A DNA stretch of 64,000 bases from Pseudomonas iranensis (GTDB taxonomy: Bacteria > Pseudomonadota > Gammaproteobacteria > Pseudomonadales > Pseudomonadaceae), in NCBI RefSeq assembly GCF_014268585.2, contig NZ_CP077092.1:2666001-2730000 (forward strand), in the 5' to 3' direction. Below the pieces are notes generated by a model. The model made no database searches and was not told the DNA's origin. It saw nothing but the letters and a program-made list of their open reading frames with translations. Of this stretch, positions 37,173 to 43,310 are shown in pieces. Each line of letters opens with the position of its first letter. Position 1 is the first letter of the stretch. Position numbers and translations under genes: made by a program.

Positions 37173-37409
37173 ATGTACACCTATCACATCGAATACCGTT
37201 TCAACGGCGAGCCTCGTACTTATCTGCTCGAACTCAAGGAAGCGCAACTGGCCGAGCACGACGCGGCGATGCATCTGCTGGAACTGCATCTGGGCGATGC
37301 GGAAAACAGCCTGGTCATGCCCACGGCGGATTCGACGCCAGAACAGATTTTCGAGCAGGCCGAGCGGGTAGGGATTACACATATCCGGGTGGTCAGCCGG
37401 ACCAATTGA
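37173..37409 (+). CDS. Small uncharacterised protein, paralogue of the one at 4805-5062
   Basis: The 78-residue protein is MYTYHIEYRFNGEPRTYLLELKEAQLAEHDAAMHLLELHL then AERVGITHIRVVS. The same plan occurs in the DUF6555-like protein at 4805 (Y.IKYRLHGVPKSFIIR..., AERFGVTDVQW). It is acidic, soluble, with no signal peptide. The ribosome-binding site is weak. It is followed by a convergent CorA-like gene. Function unknown. Confidence 0.78.
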   Translation: MYTYHIEYRFNGEPRTYLLELKEAQLAEHDAAMHLLELHLGDAENSLVMPTADSTPEQIFEQAERVGITHIRVVSRTN

Positions 37410-37451: not shown

Positions 37452-38363
37452 TCAGGCCATGCGCCGCAATACCAGCACCATCCCCGCGCCCACGAGGCCC
37501 ATGCAGGCGATCAGCACGGGAAAGGACATCCACCACGGAACGCCGGACGTCATCATGCTGAACTCCGACATGCCACCGATGCCGGCGATCAGGTTCAAGG
37601 GAAGGAATACGACGTTGATCAGCGTCAGCTTGCGCAGCGCCCGGTTCATGCTGTTGTTGGCAAGGTTGCCGTGGGATTCGATGAGGTTGGCGAACACCTT
37701 GGCGTGAATTCTGGCCTGCTGGAAGCTTTGTTCGTTTTCCACGATCAGATCGTTCAGCGCAGCCAGCTGACCGTCGCTGAAGCCCTGACGCTGACCGTGG
37801 TTGCGCAGCAGCGTCAGCACCGCTCCGTTACTTTGAATCGCATTGACGTAGTACACGAGGCTTTCGCTCAGGTTGTACATCTGCGCCAATTGCTGATTGT
37901 CCATCGCCCGGGTGAATTGCTGTTGGATCTCCCGAGCGATCTGTTTGACCACGCGCAAATGCCCGAGATAGTGGTGAACGCTTTCAGCGAGCAACGCCAT
38001 CAGCACGTCCAGCGGCCCGGTCATTTGCGCATCGTGCTCCAACCCCGAAAGCAGCGAGTTGCTCGCGCAAATAACCACCAGGCGTTTTTCGCTCAGCACC
38101 ACTCCGAAGGACGAAACGTTGAATGCGCGCCCGTCGAAGCTTTCCGGGCGCTTCCAGATCATAAACAGGTGATCAGGCTTGACCTCGATGCGGGCCACTT
38201 CGTCAGGGTCCAGCGACGACTCTATCGCTTGTGCGCCAATGCCCAGGCGTCTGTGCAAATTCAGTTGCTCGGCTGCGTCCGGGGCGACACACAGCCAGAC
38301 AGTCGCCTGTTCTCCAGATGTCCTGTGCAGGGCGCCGCAATCAATGCCATAGCCTTCAATCAT
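37452..38363 (-). CDS. CorA/ZntB-like divalent-cation transporter with altered GMN motif
   Basis: The 303-residue protein has a large soluble N-domain and two C-terminal membrane helices (LTLINVVFLPLNLIAGIGGMSEFSM and FPVLIACMGLVGAGMVLVLRRMA). This is the CorA/ZntB plan. The signature Gly-Met-Asn at the pore mouth is Gly-Met-Ser here. The cytoplasmic stalk helix is NQQLAQMYNLSESLVYYVNAIQSNGAVLTLL. The gene starts three bases after the stop of the RimK-like ligase gene, so they form an operon. The ion it carries, if any, cannot be told from the sequence. Confidence 0.85.
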   Translation of the reverse strand: MIEGYGIDCGALHRTSGEQATVWLCVAPDAAEQLNLHRRLGIGAQAIESSLDPDEVARIEVKPDHLFMIWKRPESFDGRAFNVSSFGVVLSEKRLVVICASNSLLSGLEHDAQMTGPLDVLMALLAESVHHYLGHLRVVKQIAREIQQQFTRAMDNQQLAQMYNLSESLVYYVNAIQSNGAVLTLLRNHGQRQGFSDGQLAALNDLIVENEQSFQQARIHAKVFANLIESHGNLANNSMNRALRKLTLINVVFLPLNLIAGIGGMSEFSMMTSGVPWWMSFPVLIACMGLVGAGMVLVLRRMA

Positions 38364-38366
38364 TGC

Positions 38367-39947
38367 TCACCACGCTTGGCCACGGTGTTTGAGCTCGAGC
38401 CTTTGCGTGAACGCTTGCAGCACGCGCCGATAAAGTTCGTCGCCCAGCACCGCGTCTTCGATTCCCGCATCGAGGTTGGGGTTGTCGTTCACTTCGATGA
38501 CCAAAACCCGATCGCCCGCCTGTTTGAGGTCGACGCCGTAGAGGCCGTCGCCAATCAGCCGGGCAGTCTGTACGGCGAGCTGCACGACTGCGGGCGGGGC
38601 TTGCTCGATGGGCACCGCCTCGCACATCCCGTTGATCTCGCCGGGCAGCGCCTTGTGGTTGTAAATCTGCCAATGCCCCTTGGACATGAAGTATCGGCAG
38701 GCATACAGCGCTTCGCCATTGAGCACCCCGACGCGCCAATCGTATTCGGTGTAGCAATACTCCTGCGCCAGCAGCAGCACCGAGTGCTCGAATAACTCCT
38801 GCGCAGCAGTGGCCAGCGCTTGCGCATCGGCGACCTTGATCACACCGCGCGAAAAGCAGCCATCGGGGATTTTCAGCACCAGGGGGAAACCGAGGCGACG
38901 CCCTGCGTTTTCGAGCTCCTGCGGACGATCCTTGTAGAGGATTTCCGTTACCGGCATGCCCAGCCCGCGACGCTTGAGCAGGTCGGCCAGATAGACCTTG
39001 TTGGTGCAGCGCAGGATCGACGACGGATCGTCAATCACCACAAGGCCTTCGCTTTCGGCCTTCTTGGCGAATCGATAGGTGTGATCATCCACTCGCGTTG
39101 TTTCGCGAATGAACAGCGCGTCGAATTCAGCAAGACGCGCGTAGTCTTTTTTCTCGATCAACTCGACATCGATACCCAGCTGTTCGCCCGCGGCGATGAA
39201 ACGCTGCAATGCCTCGGGGTTAGAAGGCGGCAGGGCTTCGTCAGGATCATGGAGGATGGCCAGGTCGTAGCGGGCCACGCGTTTGGAAGCGGGCTGACGC
39301 CACGTTCTGCGATTGAACGCATCCAGTGCGTCAGCGAAGACATGCTGCTGTTCGTCGCGAAGCTTGTGCAGTGCACCGGCCTTGATGCCTGCGATCTGCC
39401 AGCTCTCACCACGGCGGAATTCCACCAGCAGGATAGGGCAGGGGAACGCCTCGAACAGTTGACGGCCGATCTCTTGCAGCGGCTCGATCGAGGCCTTGCC
39501 AAAGTACAACGACAGCGTGAAGGCCTCGGTTTCGCCGTACGGGTGGTTGGCCAGCGCCCGCTCCAGCGTGCGTTGCAGATCATTCAGCCCGACCCCGTAT
39601 AGCGCTTTGCGCGCCAGCTCGCTGACGGTGCGCACCGAGGGAAAAACCTTGTGCCCACGCGCCTCGGCGAGCAATGAGCAGTAATAGCCCTGACCGAGGT
39701 ATTTGTAATTGCGGCAGAGGTTGATGACCTGGGTGCGATGAGGAAAATCATCGCTGTGTTCAAGGTAATCCTGAGCCAGCATCAGGCTCTCGCTAGGCAA
39801 GTAATCAGCCCAGTCATCCTTGCGTTCGACCAGTATGAGCAATCGACTTCCCGAGGGTTTGAGACTGGGAGGTTCCTCGCTGAGGGAGATTGTCGAATGC
39901 TCGGTTTTGTCTAATACTTCGTTCACGTTGGCTTGCACCGCTGACAT
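38367..39947 (-). CDS. RimK-like ATP-grasp ligase with N-terminal RLAN domain
   Basis: The 526-residue protein has an N-terminal part (~36-190) that begins LLILVERKDDWADYLPSESLMLAQDYLEHSDDFPHRTQVINLCRNYKYLGQGYYCSLLAEARGHKVFPSVRTVSEL. This is the domain that precedes RimK-like ATP-grasp modules in some bacteria. The ATP-grasp part (~280-510) has VVIDDPSSILRCTNKVYLADLLKRRGLGMPVTEIL, the lysine/substrate block FPLVLKIPDGCFSRGVIKV and the metal-binding end VDLKQAGDRVLVIEVNDNPNLDAG. RimK proteins add amino acids, usually glutamate, to a peptide tail. The target here is unknown. Divergent to a GNAT/C39 protease gene. Confidence 0.88.
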   Translation of the reverse strand: MSAVQANVNEVLDKTEHSTISLSEEPPSLKPSGSRLLILVERKDDWADYLPSESLMLAQDYLEHSDDFPHRTQVINLCRNYKYLGQGYYCSLLAEARGHKVFPSVRTVSELARKALYGVGLNDLQRTLERALANHPYGETEAFTLSLYFGKASIEPLQEIGRQLFEAFPCPILLVEFRRGESWQIAGIKAGALHKLRDEQQHVFADALDAFNRRTWRQPASKRVARYDLAILHDPDEALPPSNPEALQRFIAAGEQLGIDVELIEKKDYARLAEFDALFIRETTRVDDHTYRFAKKAESEGLVVIDDPSSILRCTNKVYLADLLKRRGLGMPVTEILYKDRPQELENAGRRLGFPLVLKIPDGCFSRGVIKVADAQALATAAQELFEHSVLLLAQEYCYTEYDWRVGVLNGEALYACRYFMSKGHWQIYNHKALPGEINGMCEAVPIEQAPPAVVQLAVQTARLIGDGLYGVDLKQAGDRVLVIEVNDNPNLDAGIEDAVLGDELYRRVLQAFTQRLELKHRGQAW

Positions 39948-40041
39948 GAGTAATGAATCCCTGTTGAAGAAGACGCCGCTTCAATAAATCACGGGCCTTT
40001 CGGTCTGTCCCGGTTCGTTACTCAAACTTTACGGTGCGGTC

Positions 40042-41136
40042 ATGTCTTTTGATTTTCGCTTTGCATCCATGGACGATATCGACGATCTGGTCGAATTGGA
40101 GCGGGTGTGTTTTACCCTCGACCGGTTGAATCAGCGCAACTTCAGCTGGATGCTCAGTCGAGCGAATGCCGCGTTGATTGTTGTCACCTCGGGCGCAACT
40201 CTTTGCGGTTACGCGCTGGTGCTTTTTCACCGAGGCACCTCTCTTGGACGCCTGTATTCGATTGCCGTCAGCCCTGCGTGGCGCGGACATGAGCTTGGCC
40301 AGCGTCTGCTGGAACAGGCCCAGGCCTGCGCATTGGCGCGCAACTGCGCATGGCTGCGGTTGGAGGTGCGCGCTGACAACAGCGCTGCCATTCGCCTCTA
40401 CGAAGCCAACGGCTATCAGCGCTTTGCCAGTGTCGAGGACTACTACGAGGACCACTGCGAGGCGTTGCGCTACGAGAAACGCATCCTGCGCGAAACACCA
40501 GCGCCCGCGCGCCAAGTGCCTTACTACCAGCAAACCACCGAGTTCACCTGCGGCGCCGCGTGCTTGCTGATGGCCATGTCTGCCATCGATTCGAGCCGCG
40601 CCATGACCCGAGCGGAGGAAATCCAGCTATGGCGCGAGGCGACCACCATTTTCATGACGGCGGGGCACGGTGGCTGTAGTCCTCAGGGTCTGGCATTGGC
40701 GGCCTGGCGGCGCGGTTTCGATGTGCGCCTTGAGGTCAGTCACGCGGGCTCGCTTTTTCTTCACGGCGTACGCAGCACGGAGAAGAAGTCGATCATGAAA
40801 CTGGTCGAGGACGGCTTTGCCCAAGACCTGGCGGCCACGCAAGTCGAGCAGGTGCTGGGTGAGTATCTGCAGATCGGCGCTGCGTTGGCGGCCGGATACA
40901 AACCGCTGGTGCTGATCAGCAGCTACCGATTCACCCGCTTGAAAGCGCCGCATTGGGTCATCATCACGGGGTGTGACGAGGACTTCGTCTACTTGCACGA
41001 TCCTGATGTCGACCACAGCAAACTCAAGCGCGGGCTGGACTGCCAGCACTTGCCAGTCAGTCACCAGGAATTTCTGCGCATGACGGTGTTTGGCGTCCAG
41101 CGGGTTCGCGCTGCCGTGATGCTGCGCTCCCGTTGA
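40042..41136 (+). CDS. GNAT acetyltransferase fused to a C39-type cysteine peptidase
   Basis: The 364-residue two-domain protein has residues ~1-150 as a GNAT fold (FRFASMDDIDDLVELERVCF, LGRLYSIAVSPAWRGHELGQRLLEQAQA, LEVRADNSAAIRLYEANGYQR). Residues ~158-364 resemble C39 bacteriocin-processing peptidases: YYQQTTEFTCGAACLLMAMSAI supplies the oxyanion Gln and nucleophile Cys170, and PHWVIITGCDEDFVYLHDPD supplies His304 and the Asp. All catalytic residues are present. No ABC transporter is fused, unlike bacteriocin exporters. Its divergence from the RimK-like gene matches a recurrent bacterial pair proposed to modify or process a peptide. Confidence 0.88.
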   Translation: MSFDFRFASMDDIDDLVELERVCFTLDRLNQRNFSWMLSRANAALIVVTSGATLCGYALVLFHRGTSLGRLYSIAVSPAWRGHELGQRLLEQAQACALARNCAWLRLEVRADNSAAIRLYEANGYQRFASVEDYYEDHCEALRYEKRILRETPAPARQVPYYQQTTEFTCGAACLLMAMSAIDSSRAMTRAEEIQLWREATTIFMTAGHGGCSPQGLALAAWRRGFDVRLEVSHAGSLFLHGVRSTEKKSIMKLVEDGFAQDLAATQVEQVLGEYLQIGAALAAGYKPLVLISSYRFTRLKAPHWVIITGCDEDFVYLHDPDVDHSKLKRGLDCQHLPVSHQEFLRMTVFGVQRVRAAVMLRSR

Positions 41137-41146
41137 GGAACGGTGG

Positions 41147-42718
41147 CTAGGCGCCGAGCACTTCCTCGCCGATACAGTAGCGATCCCTGCCTTTCTGCTT
41201 CGCGGCATAAAGCAGTTTGTCAGCCGACTCGATAAGGGTGGCGGGGCTCACTTCTTGTTCGGCCGGTTTGCCAACCGCAATACCTGCGCTGGCGGTGACG
41301 TGACCCAGCGGATGGGCTTTGTGCTCCATCCGCAAGGATCGAATGGCCTCAAGAATTTCCTGCGCCACAAGCGCCGCCCCGCGAATATCGGTGTTGGGCA
41401 GCAGCACGGAAAACTCCTCGCCGCCATAGCGCACGGCCAGATCACCCGGCCGTTTTACTGCTTGCGCAATCGCCTGTCCGACAGCGCTCAGGCAATCGTC
41501 ACCCGCCGCGTGCCCGTAGCTGTCGTTGTAGAGCTTGAAGTGATCGACATCGATCATGATCAGTGAGATCGACGAACCCTGGCGTCTGGCCAGGCGAATT
41601 TCGTCAACCAAGGCAGTGTCCAGTCGCCGACGGTTGGCCAACCCGGTCAGGCTGTCGGTCAACGCCATGTCCTTCATGGCCTGATGTGCCCGGCGCAGAT
41701 CCTTTTCCATCACCATCCGTTGACGCAGTTGCCTCAAGACAATCAGTCCGAAGACCGTGAACGCGGTAATCACCGACATCAGCACGAAACCGGTTTTGAT
41801 CAGGTCCCAGCGCCACGGCGCAATGATCGATTCGCGGGAAAGGCCGGTTTCGACCACCAGCGGATAGGTGCTCAAAGCTCTGTAACCGTAAAGACGCTGG
41901 GTGCCGTCGACGACCGCTCGGACCTCGGCGACCCCTTGACTGGAAAAGGGCAGGTAGTTTTTGAACACCTCACTGTCGGCGAGGCTCTGACCGATTACCG
42001 AAGCGATGAAGGGACGCCGCACGAGAATGGTGCCGTTGCGCAGCGCCAGCACCAGTGCACCCTTGTCGTCGATCTTGAAATCGCCGTAATAGTCGACGAA
42101 ATAACTGACCTTGATCGTCCCCAGCAGCACGCCGGCGAAGGAGCCGTCCGGGTTATTCAAGCGGCGGGAAATCGGGATGATCAGGTCGTCGGTGGATTTG
42201 CTCTTGACGACATCACCGATACGCACGTTTCGATCGGTGTTGGCGCGGTGATACTGGAAGTAGTCGCGGTCAGCGTTGTTCGCCGGGTCCGGGATCATTT
42301 CCTTGTCGGTGACGATCCATTTGCCGTCCGGGCCGTAGATAAACAGTCCATGCAACTGCGGCATCAACTTGGCCTGCTGCACCAGCAAGTTGTGGATGCG
42401 CGGCACGTCGATGTTTTGCAGGCCATCACCTTCGACGCGCTCGCCCAGTGCGGCGGTCAACACATCGACCTGGCGGATGGCGTCTTCGGCATGTTGCGCG
42501 GTTGCCCGCGCGAGGTTGGTGACCGAATCACGCGCCGACGAGAAGGCTGCATGATAGTCACGCCAGGTTCGCCATCCCTCCACGCCGAGAAACGCCAGAA
42601 TGACCGTCAGCATGAAGATGACTGTCAGGCGGAAAGCGGCGATCTCGCTGGCAGCTTTGATGGGAGCGGTTTGTGCGGCGTCATGCCCCCGGCTTTTGGG
42701 CATCTTACGACCGAGCAT
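41147..42718 (-). CDS. Membrane-bound diguanylate cyclase with periplasmic Cache sensor
   Basis: The protein has about 523 residues from the ATG at 42718 (AAGGA eight bases upstream); earlier ATGs at 42748 and 42766 are alternatives. One membrane helix (~26-45) precedes a periplasmic PDC/Cache domain (HGLFIYGPDGKWIVTDKEMIPDPANNADRDYFQYHRANTDRNVRIGDVVKSKSTDDLIIPISRRL). A second helix follows (WDLIKTGFVLMSVITAFTVFGLIVL), then a GGDEF domain with active site GGEEF at 432-436. An inhibitory RxxD site (RPGD, 423-426) lies five residues before it. All residues for cyclic-di-GMP synthesis are present, with product feedback. The Cache domain probably senses a small ligand. Confidence 0.93.
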   Translation of the reverse strand: MLGRKMPKSRGHDAAQTAPIKAASEIAAFRLTVIFMLTVILAFLGVEGWRTWRDYHAAFSSARDSVTNLARATAQHAEDAIRQVDVLTAALGERVEGDGLQNIDVPRIHNLLVQQAKLMPQLHGLFIYGPDGKWIVTDKEMIPDPANNADRDYFQYHRANTDRNVRIGDVVKSKSTDDLIIPISRRLNNPDGSFAGVLLGTIKVSYFVDYYGDFKIDDKGALVLALRNGTILVRRPFIASVIGQSLADSEVFKNYLPFSSQGVAEVRAVVDGTQRLYGYRALSTYPLVVETGLSRESIIAPWRWDLIKTGFVLMSVITAFTVFGLIVLRQLRQRMVMEKDLRRAHQAMKDMALTDSLTGLANRRRLDTALVDEIRLARRQGSSISLIMIDVDHFKLYNDSYGHAAGDDCLSAVGQAIAQAVKRPGDLAVRYGGEEFSVLLPNTDIRGAALVAQEILEAIRSLRMEHKAHPLGHVTASAGIAVGKPAEQEVSPATLIESADKLLYAAKQKGRDRYCIGEEVLGA

Positions 42719-42878
42719 TTGAGGGTCCTTATGCTTGTCATCTCTCATCTCTTGAAAGATGACCATCCTTTTCCACCTGGAATTCAATTTACTGCCTTGG
42801 CCAGGCTGTCGCGATTGGATCGTTCCAAGCCGTGCCGGGTCAACATCTGTAATTGAAGCGCGCCTTGAGGTGAGACTT

Positions 42879-43310
42879 GTGAGCGAAATCATCACCGCCG
42901 GTGACTTGAACATCGACCTGCACAATGCCAACGAAACCGGCCTGTTCAAATGGCTGCTGGCGAGTTTTCTGATGGGCAAAAGGATTCAGGGCGCCATCGC
43001 CGCCAAGGCGTATCAAGTCATAGTAGAGCAGCATCACCAAGACACCCCGCAAAAGCTGGCGCAGTGTACGCACCGTCAACTGGTGTCGATGCTGGGGCAG
43101 GCGCGGTACGTGCGCTACGACGAAAGCACGGCGTCGCGATTACTCGCGCTGGCCAACAAGCTCAACAGCGAGTACGCCGGCAAGGTGAGCAACATCGTGG
43201 CGGCGAGCGCGGATCGTAAGGCGCTGGAGAAGCGCCTGTCCGAGTTCGAGGGGATAGGGCCGAAGACCGTTGAGATCTTCATGAGGGAAGCGGCTGCGGT
43301 GCTGTTTTGA
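42879..43310 (+). CDS. Small HhH-fold DNA-binding protein (endonuclease III-like)
   Basis: The 143-residue protein starts at GTG 42879, preceded by GAGGTGA. The sequence includes ASFLMGKRIQGAIAAKAYQVIVEQ and ends with a helix-hairpin-helix FEGIGPKTVEIFMREAAAVLF, as in the C-terminal half of endonuclease III-like DNA glycosylases. The 4Fe-4S cysteines of EndoIII are absent, as is an obvious catalytic Lys. Full glycosylases are over 200 residues, so this may be a minimal or non-catalytic version. Divergent from the diguanylate cyclase. Confidence 0.75.
   Translation: MSEIITAGDLNIDLHNANETGLFKWLLASFLMGKRIQGAIAAKAYQVIVEQHHQDTPQKLAQCTHRQLVSMLGQARYVRYDESTASRLLALANKLNSEYAGKVSNIVAASADRKALEKRLSEFEGIGPKTVEIFMREAAAVLF

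What the first reader, a model, noticed from the sequence alone, without database searches (positions are those of the whole stretch)
37452..41136. RimK-like ligase, GNAT-C39 protease and CorA-like channel: a candidate peptide-tagging system
A RimK-like ATP-grasp ligase with the extra N-terminal domain lies head-to-head with a protein that joins a GNAT domain to a C39-type peptidase. Cys170, Gln164, His304 and the Asp are all intact. A CorA-like channel gene follows the ligase three bases after its stop. Comparative genomics has proposed that such ATP-grasp/GNAT/peptidase neighbourhoods make and trim a peptide modification, but no substrate is known to me. C39 domains normally cut double-glycine leaders next to ABC exporters, and none is present here, so the substrate may be a protein tail. 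The channel could supply the metal the ligase needs.
Basis: partly seen in the sequence, partly recalled or inferred. Interest (0 to 1): 0.7.

Follow-up and report, generated by a model that had tools for sequence, protein, structure and literature searches.

The report
RimK-like ligase, acetyltransferase-protease, altered CorA module
A widespread but uncharacterised bacterial gene module, built from look-alikes of two enzymes that decorate ribosomal proteins, probably builds, caps and trims a small glutamate-type peptide or protein tag; in Pseudomonas it has its own altered CorA membrane protein and a conserved promoter element that resembles an envelope-stress control site.

Summary
The window (Pseudomonas, P. 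siliginis-like) holds a CorA-like gene three bases after an RLAN-RimK ATP-grasp ligase, divergent from a GNAT-DUF3335 (C39-like) gene; the catalytic residues are conserved. The reading needs changing. The constant partner of the ligase is the RimI-like GNAT (82 of 87 RLAN loci), not the peptidase (62 of 87); three loci of one genus fuse GNAT to the ligase. RLAN is in 72 of 398 genomes; all 15 of those without DUF3335 have a homologous GNAT near the ligase. The CorA gene tracks the ligase within the genus (14 of 15 RLAN+ genomes, 0 of 21 RLAN-) but has GMS where CorA channels have GMN (20 of 20), so a Mg2+ supply role is doubtful. New: a GTAAA-N6-GTAA repeat lies before the ligase (exact in 15 of 25, within one mismatch in 23 of 25 Pseudomonadaceae loci). 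It resembles the predicted CpxR box of PA1345, which is an RLAN ligase too; CpxR binding is unproven. I favour a module that makes and trims an N-acetyl-capped, glutamyl-type peptide; a protein-terminus tag is a close rival. No linked substrate gene was found, and bS6/bS18 ends do not track RLAN.

The parts
37452..38363 (-). CorA-superfamily membrane protein, signature GMS instead of GMN; found with RLAN in Pseudomonas
   Evidence: Pfam CorA 106.7 bits; TIGR00383 81 bits, cut-off 200.75; GGMSEFS in 20 of 20, and two C-terminal hydrophobic segments in the 8 relatives printed, L023-L030; 14 of 15 RLAN+ and 0 of 21 RLAN- genomes of the genus sample at E<1e-15
38367..39947 (-). RLAN-RimK ATP-grasp ligase, 526 aa
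39327..39776 (-). RLAN domain (residues 58-207) with the conserved NLC....Y....GYYCSLLAEAR stretch, no PDB relative by sequence
   Evidence: alignments; no PDB hit to E 5
38469..39002 (-). RimK-type ATP-grasp domain (residues 316-493) with EVNDNPN motif
   Evidence: E485, N487, D488, N489, P490 invariant in 85 rows
40018..40032 (-). GTAAAGTTTGAGTAA, CpxR-box-like direct repeat in the divergent intergenic region, 70 bp before the ligase start and in its orientation
   Evidence: only match in 64 kb, 0.02 expected; exact in 15 of 25, within 1 mismatch in 23 of 25 Pseudomonadaceae RLAN loci; 0 of 323 (exact) and 4 of 323 (1 mismatch) control upstream regions for the same-strand N6 form; 6 of 323 for the looser N4-8 form on either strand
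40042..40491 (+). RimI-like GNAT domain (residues 1-150)
40516..41124 (+). DUF3335 C39-like cysteine peptidase domain (residues 159-361) with Q164, C170, H304, D320
   Evidence: 284 bits; conservation

Best explanation
The locus is a duplicated and repurposed RimI/RimK-type pair that makes a small peptide. The RLAN-RimK ligase uses ATP to add an amino acid, most likely glutamate, to the carboxyl end of a growing glutamyl-type peptide; the RimI-like GNAT caps the amino end with an acetyl group; the fused DUF3335 papain-like peptidase (and in other lineages a DUF2817 protein, an M14-type peptidase by recall) trims or breaks down the product. I commit to a free, N-acetyl-capped peptide rather than a protein tail. 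In Pseudomonas the ligase operon carries a dedicated CorA-fold membrane protein, probably a sensor, anchor or transporter for the system rather than a Mg2+ channel, and an OmpR/CpxR-type repeat in front of the ligase suggests induction by envelope stress. Shown here: the genes, domains, conserved catalytic residues, co-occurrence, the GNAT as the usual partner, the altered CorA motif and the conserved element. Inferred: glutamate, free product, order of steps, Cpx control, role of CorA.
For: GNAT within 2.5 kb of 82 of 87 RLAN loci, in all 15 RLAN genomes without DUF3335, and fused as GNAT-RLAN-RimK in L096, L102 and L146. The ligase model folds as RimK/LysX, the GNAT as RimI/Ard1. The genome has its own rimI (145.9 bits) and rimK (467.6 bits), so this pair is extra. 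Free-peptide side: no conserved small ORF in 3-kb flanks; in Legionella adelaidensis RLAN is in an apparent operon with GCS2 (glutamate-cysteine ligase type) and FGase; on a P. aeruginosa plasmid RLAN has no GNAT nearby and lies in a stretch with glutamate/aspartate transport genes, ggt and asparaginase; PMC12239564 (passages) states that RimK makes poly-alpha-L-glutamate peptides. Peptidases: C39-like residues conserved, DUF2817 in 9 loci. Regulation.
Against: The closest structural relatives of the GNAT acetylate protein N-termini and those of the ligase act on protein C-termini (bS6, LysW), which favours a protein substrate. The substrate amino acid is not tested. For PA1345 the paper has a motif only: DAP-seq 'n', and the gene is named once in the main text, in that motif table (PMC12802237). 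L065 and L066 have no box. DUF3335 also occurs without RLAN: G064 of the 398, the control Methanosarcina acetivorans, and loci L095, L099 and L104. In the window species and L023 the GNAT loop has E84 where 48 of 61 have G, so acetyl-CoA binding may be weakened there.
Confidence: 0.4

Rival explanations
1. Protein tagging: the ligase adds residues to the C-terminus of one or a few proteins encoded elsewhere, the GNAT acetylates an N-terminus exposed by the peptidase, and the peptidases remove the tag, like the RimK/RimB cycle on bS6.
For: GNAT is RimI/Ard1-like and the ligase RimK/LysX-like in sequence and fold; RimB is a protease that removes glutamates from RpsF and stimulates RimK (PMC11957791, abstract).
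Against: No substrate gene is linked; bS6 and bS18 ends do not differ with RLAN in the loci read; the one GCS2/FGase partner set seen consists of families that act on small molecules (activity recalled).
Confidence: 0.33
2. N-acetyl dipeptide osmolyte: the pair works like N-acetylglutaminylglutamine synthetase or the animal NAAG pathway (both recalled) and makes one dipeptide stored under stress.
For: The GNAT-RLAN-RimK fusion has the domain order that I recall for that synthetase.
Against: TIGR03103 is not among the 21 families matched by the fused protein at E 1e-3 or the 25 of 28 listed for the ligase, and the GNAT-peptidase scores 19.9 against a cut-off of 569.
Confidence: 0.15
3. Auxiliary ribosome modification: the pair modifies the bS6-bS18 neighbours in addition to RimK and RimI.
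For: Both enzymes are paralogues of the bS18 and bS6 modifiers.
Against: bS6 ends in DNADE in all 18 same-genus loci read, 4 RLAN+ and 14 RLAN- (4 of the 15 RLAN+ genomes of the genus sample); 56 of 72 RLAN genomes also have a RimK match at E<1e-50, so no general replacement.
Confidence: 0.06
4. On the promoter alone: the conserved GTAAA-N6-GTAA element is the site of another OmpR-family regulator or a core promoter feature, and the system is not part of the envelope stress response.
For: PA1345 has no DAP-seq peak for CpxR; OmpR-family sites are similar direct repeats (recalled).
Against: It fits the GTAAA-N4-8-GTAA form used for CpxR in PMC12802237, with the N6 spacing of PA1345 and PA3205 cpxP; 0 of 323 exact in control regions.
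Confidence: 0.45

Closest known systems
RimABK system of Pseudomonas (RimK ligase with RimB retropepsin on bS6 and poly-Glu)
   Same: RimK-fold ligase paired with a protease (PMC11957791 abstract; PMC12239564 passages)
   Different: Extra RLAN domain; protease is papain-like and fused to a RimI-like GNAT; canonical rimK is present elsewhere in the genome; RimK equivalog cut-off not met, 40.1 of 331
RLAN-RimK / GNAT-peptidase neighbourhoods of Iyer et al. 2009 (Mol Biosyst 5:1636; cited in papers seen, text not held; content recalled)
   Different: I could not read it, so whether GNAT-alone loci, CorA, DUF155 or GCS2/FGase partners were reported there is unknown
R2K ATP-grasp plus GNAT operons (PMC4431377, passages)
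   Same: Authors propose peptide ligation with acyl capping by a linked GNAT
   Different: Different ATP-grasp clade; the word peptidase does not occur in the main text
DUF3335 family (PMC10318531, one passage)
   Same: Papain-like, often fused to GNAT
   Different: No substrate or ligase partner gene given in that passage
CorA Mg2+ channels (PDB 4cy4, 4ev6)
   Same: Same superfamily, E 7e-13 and 9e-13
   Different: GMN signature is GMS in all 20 members seen

Membership tests
RLAN family (PF14401) | RLAN domain over cut-off followed by RimK-type ATP-grasp | tested here: met
   172 bits (cut-off 25) and RimK 40.1 (cut-off 21)
RimK bS6 glutamate ligase (NF007764) | equivalog score | tested here: not met
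   40.1 bits against 331; true rimK elsewhere, 467.6 bits
RimI bS18 acetyltransferase (TIGR01575) | equivalog score | tested here: not met
   76.2 bits against 86.4; true rimI elsewhere, 145.9 bits
RimI/Ard1-type N-terminal acetyltransferase fold | fold match | tested here: met
RimI/Ard1-type N-terminal acetyltransferase fold | catalytic Glu and Tyr (positions recalled) and N-terminal acetylation activity | tested here: inconclusive
   E108 in 58/61 and Y134 in 59/61 align with the LEVR and YY stretches of RimI 5isv; activity not testable
DUF3335 (PF11814) | score and catalytic Q, C, H, D | tested here: met
   284 bits; 61/61, 61/61, 61/61, D 54 and E 7 of 61
Peptidase C39 proper (PF03412) | score over cut-off | tested here: not met
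   19 bits, cut-off 22. The structure list was filled by the GNAT domain, so the fold of this domain is untested
Peptidase C39 proper (PF03412) | ABC exporter and double-glycine leader substrate | not tested
   no search for exporters was made
CorA Mg2+ channel (TIGR00383) | equivalog score | tested here: not met
   81 bits against 200.75
CorA Mg2+ channel (TIGR00383) | GMN signature | tested here: not met
   GMS in 20 of 20
N-acetylglutaminylglutamine synthetase (TIGR03103) | equivalog score | tested here: not met
   GNAT-peptidase 19.9 of 569; not matched by the fused GNAT-RLAN-RimK protein at E 1e-3
Cpx regulon | CpxR-type box in the promoter | tested here: met
Cpx regulon | CpxR binding and CpxR-dependent expression | not testable with these tools
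   for PA1345 published DAP-seq 'n'; the full expression table is a supplement, not looked up
RiPP gene cluster | linked precursor peptide gene | tested here: not met
   flanks of five near-group loci against 11 far-group Pseudomonas loci: 7 segments with any hit, best 3 of 11 loci and that an ABC-ATPase-like stretch; unlinked precursors not excluded

The most novel reading that the evidence does not exclude
An envelope-stress-induced pathway that makes a previously undescribed free N-acetyl-(poly)glutamyl peptide in the cytoplasm, with a CorA-fold protein that has lost the Mg2+ signature acting as its membrane sensor or transporter; RLAN ligases are its hallmark across Pseudomonadota, with GNAT, GNAT-peptidase or GCS2/FGase as interchangeable partners.
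Probability: 0.2. Interest if true: 0.75.

Novelty: new variant of a known kind. Interest (0 to 1): 0.5.

Why it matters
RLAN occurs in 72 of 398 genomes of the phylum sampled, and PA1345 of P. aeruginosa is one of these ligases, yet no functional study of it appears among the titles listed by my paper searches. The results turn a vague 'tagging' idea into a testable set: a defined enzyme pair, a defined promoter element with a candidate regulator, and a dedicated membrane protein.

Tried and rejected
Rejected or weakened: (1) C39 as core: the GNAT is the more constant partner. (2) bS6/bS18 as special substrates: ends do not track RLAN in the 30 rpsF loci fetched (6 RLAN+, 24 RLAN-; 55 of 57 genomes had a match but only 30 loci were returned; the bS18 start was read in 27). 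(3) RLAN replacing RimK: 56 of 72 RLAN genomes have a RimK match at E<1e-50; the 16 without are a hand count from the list. (4) Linked precursor peptide: none found. (5) CorA and DUF155 as one family: hhalign probability 0.3%. (6) Phage spread: no phage record matched at E 1e-10; 11 plasmid records did at E 1e-20. (7) Fold of RLAN: no PDB relative by sequence to E 5; the structure lists were filled by the ATP-grasp part, so its fold is untested. The same holds for DUF3335. (8) Rfam (gathering scores) and tRNA scans of the window: nothing.

Caveats on counts: the 87 RLAN loci include several from one genome (for example G113: L062 and L065); L080 was dropped as a duplicate of L041; L023-L043 were found through the GNAT-C39 protein, so they are biased to have it; the figures without that bias are those. 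The profiles were built from these same loci, so matches of the founding members are by construction. Neighbour genes were called by simple scripts. The 57-genome overlap in 398 and the genus tally for CorA were made by comparing printed lists. bS6 was found by its start motif only. In some searches control regions start at called gene starts, the RLAN ones at the HMM start; the 25 loci tested do not include L135 (exact match, counted apart), L141 or L142 (not tested). Pfam was run on two of the nine DUF2817 and two of the seven DUF155 proteins; the others were found by my own profiles. Paper search listed 20 of 40 titles.
Full report
What is there. The window lies in a Pseudomonas genome (window at G000:C1:2666001-2730000; nearest named locus L023, P. 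siliginis, 97% for the GNAT-peptidase). Three ORFs are as described. Pfam names them CorA, RLAN-RimK, and GNAT-DUF3335. DUF3335 is the C39-like papain family; PF03412 itself is under its cut-off.

Linkage. In 57 relatives DUF3335 is in 21 and RLAN in 23 genomes, all 21 being among the 23. In 398 genomes of the phylum DUF3335 is in 58 and RLAN in 72, with 57 shared (Fisher 1e-53). I read 88 loci with the RLAN ligase and dropped one duplicate. Of 87, 62 have the peptidase within 2.5 kb, on the other strand in 38 and the same strand in 24, and 82 have the GNAT. The five without a close GNAT are L071 and L138, where GNAT-C39 lies on another contig (L070, L139), L140 (ligase at a contig end), L135 (P. 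aeruginosa plasmid) and L136 (Legionella plasmid). All 15 RLAN genomes of the 398 that lack DUF3335 have a stand-alone GNAT within 1.5 kb of the ligase (L045-L059); the stand-alone GNAT of L063 matches the window's GNAT at 1e-49. Three loci of one genus (L096, L102, L146) fuse GNAT in front of RLAN-RimK and still have a separate GNAT-C39 gene. In G062 the ligase with a GNAT (L064) is separate from GNAT-C39 with DUF2817 and DUF155 (L086). So the writer pair is GNAT plus ligase, and the peptidase is a frequent, separable addition. DUF3335 also exists without RLAN: G064 of the 398, the control Methanosarcina acetivorans, and L095, L099 and L104.

CorA. Within the genus sample (36 genomes) the CorA subfamily is found at E<1e-15 in 14 of 15 RLAN genomes and 0 of 21 others (Fisher 4e-9). 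G006 has the pair but no CorA match, and in G011 the gene is split over two frames. It stays with the ligase in G017 (L063), which has GNAT but no DUF3335, so it goes with the ligase, not with the peptidase. In the 83 loci its profile hits only Pseudomonas. The GMN selectivity signature of CorA channels (PMC9511408, passages) is GMS in all 20 sequences, while the two best PDB matches carry GMN. Outside Pseudomonas a different protein with one hydrophobic C-terminal segment, DUF155 (RMND1 family), is found in 7 loci and DUF2817 in 9; DUF155 and CorA are not detectably related.

Promoter. The region between the ligase and GNAT-C39 is conserved in 17 Pseudomonas loci with the divergent order. Its best conserved part is a direct repeat, GTAAA-N6-GTAA, pointing at the ligase. 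It is the only such match in the 64-kb window (0.02 expected). It is exact in 15 and within one mismatch in 23 of 25 Pseudomonadaceae RLAN loci, with GNAT-C39 or GNAT alone as partner and also in the tandem order (L031, L038); L065 and L066 lack it. Of 323 control upstream regions none is exact and 4 have one mismatch; of 52 loci from other taxa none is within one mismatch. With the looser N4-8 form on either strand the figures are 15 of 25, 1 of 52 and 6 of 323. PMC12802237 (passages and section 7, part 1) lists PA1345, 'hypothetical ATP-binding protein', with the predicted CpxR site GTAAAGCTTGCGTAA at -69. That exact site lies 69 bp before the RLAN ligase of L135, a P. aeruginosa plasmid, so I take PA1345 to be this ligase; the PAO1 record itself was not examined. 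The paper found the site by motif only, without a DAP-seq peak, and names PA1345 once in the main text. CpxR control is therefore a hypothesis. Relatedness of the promoters inflates the count; the persistence across rearrangements is the stronger point.

Substrate. No small ORF is conserved between two groups of Pseudomonas loci within 3 kb (five loci against 11). bS6 ends alike in 18 same-genus loci, 4 with and 14 without RLAN, and bS18 starts do not track RLAN either. In L. adelaidensis the ligase forms an apparent operon with GCS2 and N-formylglutamate amidohydrolase, and on the P. aeruginosa plasmid it lies in a stretch with glutamate/aspartate transport, ggt and asparaginase genes. These point to free glutamate chemistry. 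The kinship of both enzymes with protein-terminus modifiers points the other way. I give the free peptide 0.4 and the protein tag 0.33.

Prior work. Held papers mention DUF3335 once (fused to GNAT, PMC10318531, one passage) and RLAN with ATP-grasp not at all; none of the titles listed by the combination searches (one search listed 20 of 40) is a study of this module. Iyer et al. 2009 is cited by papers seen but not held; that it covers RLAN is recalled. An acyl cap by a linked GNAT was proposed for another ATP-grasp clade (PMC4431377, passages). I rate this a new variant of a known, uncharacterised kind.

Noticed in passing
window 40291-40293 (GNAT residue E84): The loop that by recall binds acetyl-CoA has Glu where 48 of 61 relatives have Gly; 2 of 61 rows have Glu, the window and (by its near-identical sequence) L023. 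The GNAT may be weakened in this species.
   Followed up: partly
L136:41-3232: Legionella adelaidensis plasmid: RLAN ligase in a tight gene row with a GCS2 ligase and an N-formylglutamate amidohydrolase, no GNAT.
   Followed up: partly
L078, L082, L086, L087, L089, L091, L139: DUF155 (RMND1 family) sits with RLAN or GNAT-C39 genes.
   Followed up: partly
L043, L086-L091, L093, L137: DUF2817 gene, by recall an M14-type peptidase family, next to RLAN or GNAT-C39.
   Followed up: partly
L096, L102, L146: GNAT-RLAN-RimK single polypeptides of one genus, with a separate GNAT-C39 gene beside them.
   Followed up: yes
L095, L099, L104: DUF3335 genes without an RLAN neighbour and with weak or no adjoining GNAT.
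   Followed up: no
window 41147-42979 (-): dCache-GGDEF diguanylate cyclase gene whose end lies 10 bases from the end of the GNAT-peptidase gene; its cluster holds only the window, L023 and L032.
   Followed up: no
window 37173-37409 (+): 78-aa ORF with a sub-threshold DUF6555 match (21 of 30.5 bits) beside the CorA gene; among the loci it matched only in L023.
   Followed up: partly
L029:8339-9825; L142:9447-10366: RLAN ligase and CorA gene, respectively, split over two frames: sequence error or broken gene.
   Followed up: no
L135: A P. aeruginosa plasmid (pZYPA1927) carries the PA1345-type ligase in a stretch with glutamate transport genes and ggt.
   Followed up: no
PMC12153261, table 1 (one passage): A 'RimK family alpha-L-glutamate ligase' (EAR30706) ranks third among proteins raised in Pseudoalteromonas tunicata biofilm; whether it has RLAN was not checked.
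   Followed up: no
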